Positions 59,425 through 62,622 of a stretch of DNA of 64,000 bases are shown one piece after another. Numbering within the stretch: position 1 is the first letter of the stretch; each line of letters opens with the position of its first letter. Position numbers and translations under genes: made by a program. A model generated the notes under the pieces. That model had not been told where the DNA came from. It saw nothing but the letters and a program-made list of their open reading frames with translations, and made no database searches. Origin of the DNA: Irpex lacteus (taxonomy: Eukaryota > Basidiomycota > Agaricomycetes > Polyporales > Irpicaceae); the NCBI GenBank assembly GCA_001986395.2, contig MQVO02000010.1:620001-684000 (forward strand). The letters run 5' to 3'.

Positions 59425-62400
59425 ATGGGCAAGCCTACCAACATCCGCAACATGAGTGTGATTGGTCACAGTGAGGCCCATATTCACGGATCTGTGGACT
59501 GAAGAATCTAAAGTTCTCGCAGCTGACCACGGAAAAGTCACTTTGGCCGACTCAATCGTATCAAAGGCTTGTATGTTGACTGGTCGCCGGCAGACTCGCC
59601 CGTGGTACGGCGATACAACAGATGATACTATCACCATCAAGTCGACTGCTATCTCAATGTATTTCGAGTTGGAGGAGGAGTATGTTAAAACTATCAAGCA
59701 ACCCACCGAAGGTAAGCACGCCCCACCTCGGGCAAAAGCTGATCAGCGCCCGTCCGAAATCCTCACAAAAGGGATTAATTCACACACCTAACGTGTTGCG
59801 GATAAAAGACCTCTTAAGTAAATATTTGTAAAGATCACAGACCATTAATGTTCAAGCGCACATGTAGCCTTTGTTTCGCACGAAAAACGAGCGAAAAACC
59901 GTCGAAAAGTGATCCCTTTCATCGAGCATAAAGGAAACCTCCTTGCTACTTGCCAAAATCAGTCACGCCAGATCGCTCCCGATGGCTACTCAGCCGATTG
60001 TTTACCTTTGTTCACAGCGAAGATTATCACTTTTCGATGGTTTTTCGACGGTCTCATAGCCTGACCTTCGGCCCGGGGGATAATGGCGTAAAAGGATAAT
60101 GAAATTGACCTTTTACTCCAGAGATAAAACCACCTCAAATGGCTTGGTTATATGTGTGAATCGATTGGTGTTGTGCGCCTTTCTGAAAGTCGCTGATCGG
60201 CGTTTGCCTGAGGTGCCCTAACTCGTCAAAAATATCAGATTCTCACACGTGTACAGGCCGCGAGTTTTTGATCAACTTGATCGGCATCCTCGGACCTATT
60301 GACTACTCACCTGAAATCACGCCCACTCTCCGTGTCACCGACGGTGCCCTCGTTGTTGTTGACTGCGTGGAGGGTTTCTGTGGGCAAACCGAAACCTTGC
60401 TTCGTCAAGCGCTGTTGGAGCGTGTCACGCCTGTTCTCGTGATCAACAAGCTCGACCGTGCCATCCTCGACTTCCACACCGACAATGAGACTCTCTTCCA
60501 GGAATTCCGCCGTATCATCGACTCCGTAAACGGTGTCATCTCGATGTACCAGGACAATGCTCTTGGTGATGTCCAGGTCTACCCCGACAAGGGCACCGTT
60601 GCCTTTGGTTCCGGTCTTCACGGCTGGGCCTTCACACTGCGCCAATTCGCCAACCGTTATGCCCAAAAGTTTGGCGTTGACAAGGAAAAGATGATGGCTA
60701 AGCTTTGGGGCGACAACTACTTCAATCCCGCCACTCGCAAATGGTTGACGAAATCTACCGACGCTGACGGCAAGCCCCTAGATCGTGCCTTCAGCATGTT
60801 CGTTCTCGACCCAATATACAAGATCTTCGACACTGTTTTGGACTCCAATCACGACGTCATTAGCATACTGCTCGGCAAGCTCGACATCGAGCTCATCCAG
60901 GACGACCGTGATCTCGAGGGCAAAAGTCTACTGAAGGTCATCATGAGGAAGTTCCTGCCCGTTGACGAGGCTCTCTTGGAGATGATAGTCATCAATCTGC
61001 CCTCTCCCACCACCGCGCAGCGTTACCGTGTCGAGACTCTCTACGAGGGTCCCATGGACGACGAGACTGTCGTCGGTATCCGTGAGTGCAATCCTAGTGG
61101 ACCTCTCTGCTTGTACGTATCCAAGATGGTGCCTACTTCCGAGAAGGGACGTTTCTACGCCTTCGGTCGTGTCTTCTCTGGCACTATCCGTGCTGGCCCC
61201 AAGATCCGTATCCAGGGCCCCAACTACGTCCCCGGAAAGAAGGAGGACTTGTTCATCAAGTCAATTCAGCGCACATTCATCATGATGGGCCGCTACGTAG
61301 AGTCGATCGAGGATTGCCCTGCTGGAAATATCGTTGCCCTTGCTGGCATCGACCAGTTCTTGCTCAAGAGCGGTACCCTTACCACTTCCGAGACTGCCCA
61401 CAACATGAAGGTCATGCGTTTCTCCACTTCTCCTGTCGTGCAGTGCGCTGTCGAGGTCAAGTACGCCGCCGATCTCCCTAAGCTCATCGATGGTCTTAAG
61501 CGTCTCTCGAAATCCGACCCCTGTGTCCAGACCTGGATCAACGAGAGCGGTGAGCACATCGTCGCTGGTGCTGGTGAGCTCCACTTGGAGATTTGCTTGA
61601 AGGATCTCCAGGAGGACCATGCTGGTGTCCCTCTCAATATTTCCGACCCCTTCGTAGGCTACCGTGAAACTATCCGCACCGAGTCCTCGATTGTCGCTCT
61701 CTCCAAGTCGCAGAACAAGCACAACCGTATGTACGTCAAGGCACAGCCTCTCGAGGAGGAGTTGACCCTCGCCATCGAAGCAGGCAAGGTCTCTGCCAGT
61801 CAGGACTCCAACATCCGAGCAGGCCTCCTTGCGGACAAGTTTGGTTGGGACGTCACCGAAGCCAGGAAGATTTGGTGCTTCGGCCCCGATACCACTGGCC
61901 CCAACTTGCTCGTCGATGTCACCAAGGGTGTGCAGTACCTCAACGAAATCAAGGATTCGTGTGTTGCTGCCTTCCAGTGGGCGACCAAGGAGGGGGTCTG
62001 CTGCGAGGAGAACGTCCGTGGTGTCAGGTTCAACATCCTCGACGTTACGGTAAGTACCATCGTCGTTGGTTTCCTGATAGCATATACTCATGTTAATATG
62101 TTCATTCAACTAGCTACTCAGTGATGCCATCCATCGTGGTGGGGGACAGGTTATCCCTATGTGTCGTCGTGTCTGCTACGCCGCTTGTTTGCTCGCAGAC
62201 CCCGGGCTCCTGGAGCCCGTCTACTTGGTTGAGATCCAGTGCACGGAGTCTGTCGTCGGTGGTGTCCACTCTGTGCTTAGTCAGCGTCGTGGTAAGGTCT
62301 TCAGCGAGGAGCAGAAGCCCGGAGCCCCCATGCTTACGGTCAAGGCTTACCTGCCCGTTGCTGAGTCGTTCGGCTTCCACGGTGACCTCTATGCCGCCAC

Positions 62401-62622
62401 CTCTGGTCAAGCATCCCACGATACTGTGTTTGATCACTACGAGTTGATCGATGGATGTAAGTGCATATATTAGTCGGTCTCTGGTGTGTCGATGCTGACG
62501 TCGATATTGCAGCTCCTTTGGAGAAGGGTAGCAAGGTAGAGGAACTGGTCAGAAGCATCCGTGTGCTGAAGGGTCTCAAGCCAGACATCCCGTCGCTCGA
62601 CACATATTACGATAAGCTCTAA
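59425..62622 (+). CDS. eEF2 paralogue with lost GTPase motifs (start codon uncertain)
   Basis: Five exons (59425-59470, 59523-59711, 60257-62049, 62114-62456, 62513-62622) join to 826 aa without any frameshift or stop. Introns fall exactly where the true eEF2 has them, and the last three exons have identical lengths (1793, 343, 110 nt), so it arose by DNA duplication, not from mRNA. Changes cluster in the G domain: AHVDHGKST has become GHTDHGKVT, the switch-I region is four residues shorter and lacks IERG, and DSPGHVDF is GILGPIDY. NKLD and the diphthamide loop DAIHRGGGQ remain. The MVNFTVD exons are missing; the first in-frame Met is at 59425. It could be a pseudogene still young, or a non-GTPase derivative under selection. 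Confidence 0.8.
59724..60215. mobile_element. 492-bp non-autonomous TIR element (MITE-like) in an intron
   Basis: The ends 59724-59748 and 60191-60215 are inverted repeats matching at 22 of 25 positions (outer bases CACCTC). CCC on both flanks (59721-59723, 60216-60218) fits a 3-bp target duplication. A second internal inverted repeat of 22 bp with one mismatch (59892-59913 / 60026-60047, core CGAAAAACC and TCGAAAAGTGAT) lies inside. No transposase frame. Removing the element plus one CCC leaves an intron of 50 nt, close to 59 nt in the parent gene. Confidence 0.75.

What the first reader, a model, noticed from the sequence alone, without database searches (positions are those of the whole stretch)
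59425..62622. Intact eEF2 paralogue whose GTPase centre is destroyed
All retained exons read through for 826 codons with no frameshift, and domains II-V stay close to the parent while the P-loop Ser (Mg2+ ligand), the switch-I Gly and the DxPGH Asp/Pro/His are all replaced. A neutral pseudogene should gather indels and stops evenly; here damage is concentrated in the catalytic motifs while NKLD and the diphthamide loop persist. A GTPase-dead eEF2 could act as a ribosome-binding decoy or regulator.
Basis: partly seen in the sequence, partly recalled or inferred. Interest (0 to 1): 0.85.

Follow-up and report, generated by a model that had tools for sequence, protein, structure and literature searches.

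The report
Intact eEF2 copy with dead GTPase
A wood-rotting fungus carries a second, still intact copy of the ribosome motor gene eEF2 whose energy-using site has been wiped out while most of the rest looks kept by selection, which suggests a protein with a new, non-motor role rather than a dead gene.

Summary
The copy is a complete seven-exon gene (window 59269-62622, + strand, 838 codons). All 12 splice sites are intact on both haplotype contigs. P-loop Ser33, switch I (four codons deleted, including Gly67) and Asp104/Pro106/His108 are lost on both. The parent eEF2 lies in the same window (33124-30252, - strand). The assembly matches Irpex lacteus F17.

A neutral pseudogene is rejected. Introns differ 40% from the parent with 8 gaps in 330 bp; exons differ 15% with one net gap, an in-frame 12-base loss. 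A neutral simulation gives 13.5 stops on average; there are none. Pairwise dN/dS is 0.14 overall and 0.11 over domains II-V. Between the two alleles N:S is 10:18, below neutral expectation.

"Damage only in the catalytic motifs" is partly right. Changes at otherwise invariant sites are enriched in the G domain. A dN/dS excess is seen only for the motif codons and is significant in one haplotype pair of two. Domain V and tip residue His694 are also altered, and some gene conversion is likely.

Best reading: a lineage-specific eEF2 pseudo-GTPase under weaker selection than its parent. Its role is inferred and its expression untested.

The parts
59269..59273 (+). paralogue exon 1 (ATGGT), start codon
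   Evidence: splice model; same on C141 allele
59332..59345 (+). paralogue exon 2; intron 2 after it has a GC donor as in the parent
59523..59711 (+). paralogue exon 4: P-loop (S33V) and rewritten switch I with net 12-base loss
59718..60213 (+). MITE-like insertion of about 490 bp in intron 4 (terminal inverted repeats seen by eye); absent from the C141 allele; many copies in the genome
   Evidence: alignment; copy search
60257..62049 (+). paralogue exon 5: G3 motif DSPGH -> GILGP, NKLD, G', domains II, III, most of IV
62114..62456 (+). paralogue exon 6: domain IV tip (His699 kept, H694L) and domain V
62513..62622 (+). paralogue exon 7 with stop TAA (TGA in the C141 allele)
58655..58756 (-). 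remnant of the 5' part of the head-to-head neighbour (weak GNAT-like) duplicated together with eEF2; only a short frame is recognisable
   Evidence: tblastx pieces; frames; weak Pfam match of the full neighbour
30252..33124 (-). parent eEF2, seven exons, 842 aa, GTPase motifs intact

Best explanation
The gene is a lineage-specific inverted duplicate of eEF2, about 26 kb from its parent. It has been kept as a protein-coding gene while losing the motifs needed to bind Mg-GTP normally and to hydrolyse it: an eEF2 pseudo-GTPase. Shown: intact gene structure, shared motif loss on both haplotype contigs, and coding constraint outside the motifs. Inferred: the protein is made; it cannot run the GTP cycle; it acts through the kept G', II, III and IV surfaces, most likely as a nucleotide-independent binder of ribosomes or of an eEF2 partner that modulates or competes with eEF2. 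I put about 0.35 on that specific mechanism and the stated confidence on the broader claim of a maintained pseudo-GTPase. With switch I rewritten it also loses Thr57, the eEF2-kinase site (recalled), so it would escape that control.
For: Intact seven-exon frame and all 12 splice sites on both contigs. Introns against parent: 132 of 330 aligned bases differ with 8 gaps, 33-56% in each of the six introns, while exons differ at 381 of 2514 bases with one net 12-base in-frame gap. Neutral simulation: mean 13.5 stops, minimum 5 of 300 runs, observed 0; three or fewer indels where about 30 are expected has P about 3e-10. Pairwise dN/dS 0.141 overall, 0.114 for II-V with LR 149 against 1. Alleles: 10 N and 18 S codons, dN/dS 0.19, LR 18 against 1; permutation P 0.0006 and 0.002. 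Of 62 changes at near-invariant eEF2 sites 35 fall in residues 1-218 (expected 19, P 5e-6), whereas a damaged eEF2 from Candolleomyces (P0154) has 12 of 37, as expected by chance, and two other divergent eEF2s have 5 of 39 and 5 of 27. Pfam still recognises the eEF2 domains above cut-off.
Against: No transcript or peptide evidence could be obtained. Constraint between alleles is about 20 times weaker than on the parent (dN/dS 0.19 against 0.008), and one C141 replacement hits Gly214 in the kept GSGL segment. The allele signal rests on 28 codons, and within the low-divergence block exons are not less diverged than introns 1-5 (2 differences by eye; 9 of the 11 intron differences lie in intron 6). 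Four-fold divergence is patchy (P = 0.0005) with an 89-base identical tract, so gene conversion from the parent inside exon 5 has probably helped to keep parts alike. Domain V and His694 are altered, which weakens the case for tight ribosome binding. No orthologue was found among listed hits.
Confidence: 0.6

Rival explanations
1. A dying duplicate: it was useful or redundant for a time (which explains the divergence-based dN/dS), has recently lost function, and gene conversion from the parent slows its decay.
For: Patchy four-fold divergence and identical tracts; weaker constraint than the parent; loss of invariant residues in G and V; a MITE-like insert in intron 4 of one allele; exons no less diverged than introns 1-5 between alleles; no orthologue among listed hits.
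Against: The allele comparison, the most recent time slice, still shows fewer replacements than neutral. No stop, frameshift or splice loss on either contig. Introns 5 and 6, inside the conserved 3' half, are as diverged as the 5' introns, so long conversion tracts have not swept that half.
Confidence: 0.27
2. A GTPase-independent slow translocase, working as reported for the Bacteroides EF-G paralogue that moves ribosomes without hydrolysis.
For: Domains II-IV and His699 are largely kept. Precedent that an EF-G paralogue catalyses translocation without GTP hydrolysis (passage in PMC12775393).
Against: His694, part of the H583/H694/Diph699 tip (passage in PMC4896748), is Leu here; H694N is reported to cause frameshifts in yeast (passage in PMC6193676). 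P-loop and switch I losses predict loss of nucleotide binding as well (inference), and domain V is relaxed.
Confidence: 0.08
3. A decoy or spare target for compounds or proteins that attack eEF2 (binding surfaces in domains III-V and His699 kept, catalysis not needed).
For: Retention of domain III and the His699 loop with loss of the GTPase motifs.
Against: Of 10 window ORFs scanned with Pfam (of 76 stop-to-stop frames of 130 aa or more) two had matches, an SMC hinge and WD40 repeats, neither pointing to a biosynthetic cluster. Nothing here tests drug binding.
Confidence: 0.05

Closest known systems
eEF2 (EFT1/EFT2 family), the parent and orthologues such as Irpex rosettiformis P0001
   Same: Same seven-exon gene as the parent, all domains, 82.9% identity to the parent, NKxD and His699 kept.
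   Different: G1, switch I and G3 motifs destroyed; H694L; altered domain V.
Bacteroides EF-G paralogue lacking GTPase activity (Han et al. 2023; paper not held; known here through its citation in PMC12775393)
   Same: Duplicate of a translocase without GTPase activity (works-like comparison only).
   Different: Bacterial and reported to catalyse translocation. The fungal copy is recent and its activity unknown; the bacterial motif losses were not compared here.
Snu114, Ria1/EFL1 and Ski7, translational-GTPase paralogues (passages and one section of PMC4342817; Ski7's loss of normal GTPase motifs is recalled)
   Same: Eukaryotic paralogues of elongation-type GTPases with roles other than elongation.
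   Different: Snu114 and Ria1 predate the last eukaryotic common ancestor; the present gene appears to have arisen inside the Irpex lineage and is still 83% identical to its parent eEF2.

Membership tests
functional eEF2 translational GTPase | P-loop AHVDHGK[S/T]T with Mg-binding Ser/Thr | tested here: not met
   S33V, V28T, A26G on both haplotype contigs
functional eEF2 translational GTPase | switch I with RGITI | tested here: not met
   I64-G67 deleted, residues 44-57 replaced
functional eEF2 translational GTPase | G3 DxPGH with catalytic His | tested here: not met
   GILGP: D104G, P106L, H108P
functional eEF2 translational GTPase | NKxD motif and diphthamide acceptor His699 | tested here: met
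functional eEF2 translational GTPase | tip triad H583/H694/H699 | tested here: not met
   H583 and H699 kept, H694L; triad from a passage of PMC4896748
neutral pseudogene | stops, frameshifts, broken splice sites | tested here: not met
   none on either contig
neutral pseudogene | dN/dS near 1 on its branch | tested here: not met
   pairwise 0.14 (a neutral copy of a constrained parent would give about 0.5, by inference); alleles 0.19, LR 18 against 1
processed (retro) copy | introns absent | tested here: not met
   six introns at parent positions
pseudo-GTPase (maintained, catalytically dead paralogue) | catalytic motifs lost while the rest is constrained | tested here: met
   motif dN/dS excess significant in one of two haplotype pairs only
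pseudo-GTPase (maintained, catalytically dead paralogue) | protein is expressed and has a role | not testable with these tools
   no RNA or protein data at hand

The most novel reading that the evidence does not exclude
A eukaryotic elongation factor 2 turned into a maintained pseudo-GTPase within one fungal genus, acting as a nucleotide-independent, kinase-insensitive regulator of (or decoy for) eEF2 on the ribosome.
Probability: 0.35. Interest if true: 0.75.

Novelty: new variant of a known kind. Interest (0 to 1): 0.55.

Why it matters
eEF2 is a very constrained protein: the parent's two alleles here differ at 61 synonymous codons and no amino acid. A young copy that lost the GTPase motifs yet stays under coding constraint would be a natural experiment on what eEF2 can do without GTP. 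It would be a eukaryotic counterpart to the GTPase-lacking bacterial EF-G paralogue, and both copies can be studied in a culturable fungus.

Tried and rejected
Orthologue search: the high hit to the divergent segment in Allomyces (P0121) is a protein with a repeated normal G domain, not an orthologue. Searches list 120 proteins each (of 7994 and 4008 hits), 172 distinct in all. Of these, 171 have DHGK[ST], D[ST]PGH and NKxD, and the remaining one (P0154) has D[ST]PGH, so none carries the GILGP lesion. The window's own parent is not among the listed hits (best 96.3%), so I. lacteus itself seems not to be represented, and absence is informative only for I. rosettiformis and more distant fungi.

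Assembly duplicate or chimera: rejected. Parent and paralogue occur in the same order on a second contig that aligns to the window in nine pieces at 82-95% identity. That the second contig is the other haplotype is an inference from this synteny.

Pure gene-conversion explanation of the conserved 3' half: rejected as sole cause because introns 5 and 6 are 41% and 38% diverged. Partial conversion in exon 5 is retained.

'G domain decays faster than the rest': not supported as a whole-domain statement (LR 3.2; without codons 44-67 P = 0.40 and 0.25). My first, broader motif boundaries (22-36, 44-72, 100-118), chosen after seeing the alignment, gave LR 14.9 in the one pair tested. The textbook boundaries gave P 0.009 and 0.12. 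None of these P values is corrected for the number of tests.

Literature: no paper on an eEF2 pseudo-GTPase or eEF2 paralogue in fungi appeared in the listings (15 of 173 listed; none found; none found; one found). Han et al. 2023 and Ortiz and Kinzy 2005 are not held. No structure prediction was run: it would return an eEF2 fold without telling function.

Full report
What is there. The window is G000:C187:620001-684000 of a 44,346,346-base, 317-contig genome. Contig number and size match the published Irpex lacteus F17 draft closely (317 contigs, 44,362,654 bp; passages of PMC5596461), and the closest listed eEF2 is from Irpex rosettiformis (96.3% to the parent). The species name is an inference from these two facts. 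The parent eEF2 (842 aa, seven exons) lies at 33124-30252 on the minus strand.

Duplication. Homology between the two loci runs from a piece of the head-to-head neighbour gene (tblastx pieces at about 58655-58756; the full neighbour at 33742-34431 resembles a GNAT acetyltransferase only weakly, E = 0.25) to ten bases past the stop. The co-duplicated neighbour piece keeps only a short recognisable frame, while the eEF2 frame is intact. Parent and I. rosettiformis differ at 31 aligned amino-acid sites. Polarity was taken from the commonest state in the other listed homologues, which is weak at variable sites. At 10 sites the parent looks derived: the paralogue shares the parent's state at 7, I. 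rosettiformis's at 2 and neither at 1. At 14 sites I. rosettiformis looks derived: the paralogue agrees with the parent at 10, with I. rosettiformis at 1 and with neither at 3. Seven sites are unclear. So the duplication most simply postdates the split from I. rosettiformis. Gene conversion could mimic part of this.

Two haplotypes. Contig C141 carries both genes in the same order and aligns to the window in nine pieces at 82-95% identity. The paralogue allele there has an intact 838-codon frame, shares the G-domain lesions and ends in TGA instead of TAA. It lacks the intron-4 insertion.

Lesions. Relative to the parent: A26G, V28T, S33V, T36A; residues 44-57 all changed and I64-G67 deleted; D104G, S105I, P106L, H108P; H694L, T695S. 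Unchanged in the window copy: D29-K32, T34, G107, N158-K159-D161, S213, H583, H699. In an alignment with 119 of the 120 homologues listed, 76 of 540 near-invariant sites are changed in the paralogue and 3 in the parent: 43 of 160 in the G domain (1-218 and 329-345), 13 of 54 in domain V, and 20 of 326 in G', II, III and IV. In a wider alignment of 166 of the 172 listed homologues, 35 of 62 changed invariant sites lie in residues 1-218 (145 of 474 invariant sites; P = 5e-6). H108 is the catalytic histidine and H583/H694/Diph699 the tip triad according to passages of PMC4896748.

Is it decaying? Introns of the two copies differ at 132 of 330 aligned bases with 8 gaps, and each of the six introns is 33-56% different, so neutral divergence is deep and roughly even along the gene. 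The coding part differs at 381 bases with 143 replacement and 163 synonymous codons and one net 12-base gap. Half the intron divergence applied neutrally to the parent coding sequence (60% transitions assumed) gives 13.5 stops on average, minimum 5 in 300 runs; the intron gap rate predicts about 30 indels on the paralogue branch. None of the former and one net region of the latter is seen. Pairwise dN/dS by maximum likelihood (my own GY94-type script, F3x4) is 0.141, or 0.122 on the other haplotype pair. By region it is: residues 1-130, 0.17; 131-218, 0.19; 219-345, 0.13; II, 0.09; III, 0.17; IV (559-726), 0.09; V, 0.34; 801-842, 0.02, where dS (3.3) is saturated and the estimate unreliable; 346-842 together 0.114, LR 149 against 1. 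As the parent appears to contribute almost only synonymous change, the paralogue's own ratio is up to about twice this, by inference. Between the two paralogue alleles there are 10 replacement and 18 synonymous codon differences: dN/dS 0.19, LR 18 against 1, permutation P 0.0006 and 0.002 depending on direction. The parent's alleles have 0 and 61. Against this, exons are not less diverged between alleles than introns 1-5 (2 differences by eye; 11 intron differences in all), so the allele signal rests on the N:S ratio alone.

Where is the damage concentrated? Four-fold sites are patchier than chance (P = 0.0005; 23 of 40 different in codons 1-130, 56 of 229 from codon 346), and identical tracts reach 89 bases. 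Part of the contrast between G domain and the rest is therefore synonymous depth, most likely from short conversion tracts in exon 5. With separate depths, G, G' and II-V do not differ in dN/dS (LR 3.2, 2 df). The motif codons do in the window pair (0.72 against 0.13, P = 0.009) but not significantly in the C141 pair (0.37 against 0.11, P = 0.12). Leaving codons 44-67 out, G1 plus G3 give P = 0.017 and 0.12. Domain V is relaxed against II-IV in both pairs (P = 0.003 and 0.005).

A contrast. The Candolleomyces eurysporus protein P0154 (a partial record) also carries damaged eEF2 motifs (P-loop Asp29 replaced by Asn). Its 37 changes at invariant sites are spread as chance predicts, 12 in residues 1-218 against 11.3 expected; the difference from the paralogue has P = 0.024.

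Mechanism. Loss of the P-loop Ser/Thr, of switch I and of Asp104/His108 predicts no normal Mg-GTP binding and no hydrolysis (established GTPase biochemistry, recalled). The kept G', II, III and most of IV argue for retained protein or ribosome contacts; H694L and the altered domain V argue against a normal translocase. I therefore favour a nucleotide-independent binder that modulates eEF2 function over a slow translocase or an inhibitor sponge. Expression, binding and phenotype are all untested.

Verdict. A real, intact, constrained eEF2 pseudo-GTPase gene, new as a variant of a known kind (dead paralogue of a translational GTPase). It is unproven as a working protein.

Noticed in passing
window 59718-60213: MITE-like element (terminal inverted repeats seen by eye) inserted in intron 4 of one allele only; 39 matches in the genome including itself, of which 21 others cover most of its length at 77-95% identity.
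   Followed up: partly
window 59250-62250 against C141: The two haplotype contigs differ by 0-2.1% per 250 bases across the paralogue, introns 1-5 included, while 1-kb bins elsewhere in the window run from 1.6 to 14.4% (two other bins are below 2%). A recent exchange between haplotypes or a sweep at this locus would explain it.
   Followed up: partly
P0154, Candolleomyces eurysporus: Another eEF2 record (partial) with damaged motifs (P-loop Asp to Asn, altered switch I, G701S) and 37 of 474 invariant sites changed, spread evenly.
   Followed up: partly
P0121, Allomyces macrogynus: Protein model with two head-to-tail copies of the first about 153 residues of eEF2; possibly an assembly or gene-model artefact.
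   Followed up: no
window 30252-33124: Parent eEF2 alleles differ at 61 synonymous and 0 replacement codons (dS 0.12), showing high diversity between the two haplotype contigs.
   Followed up: yes
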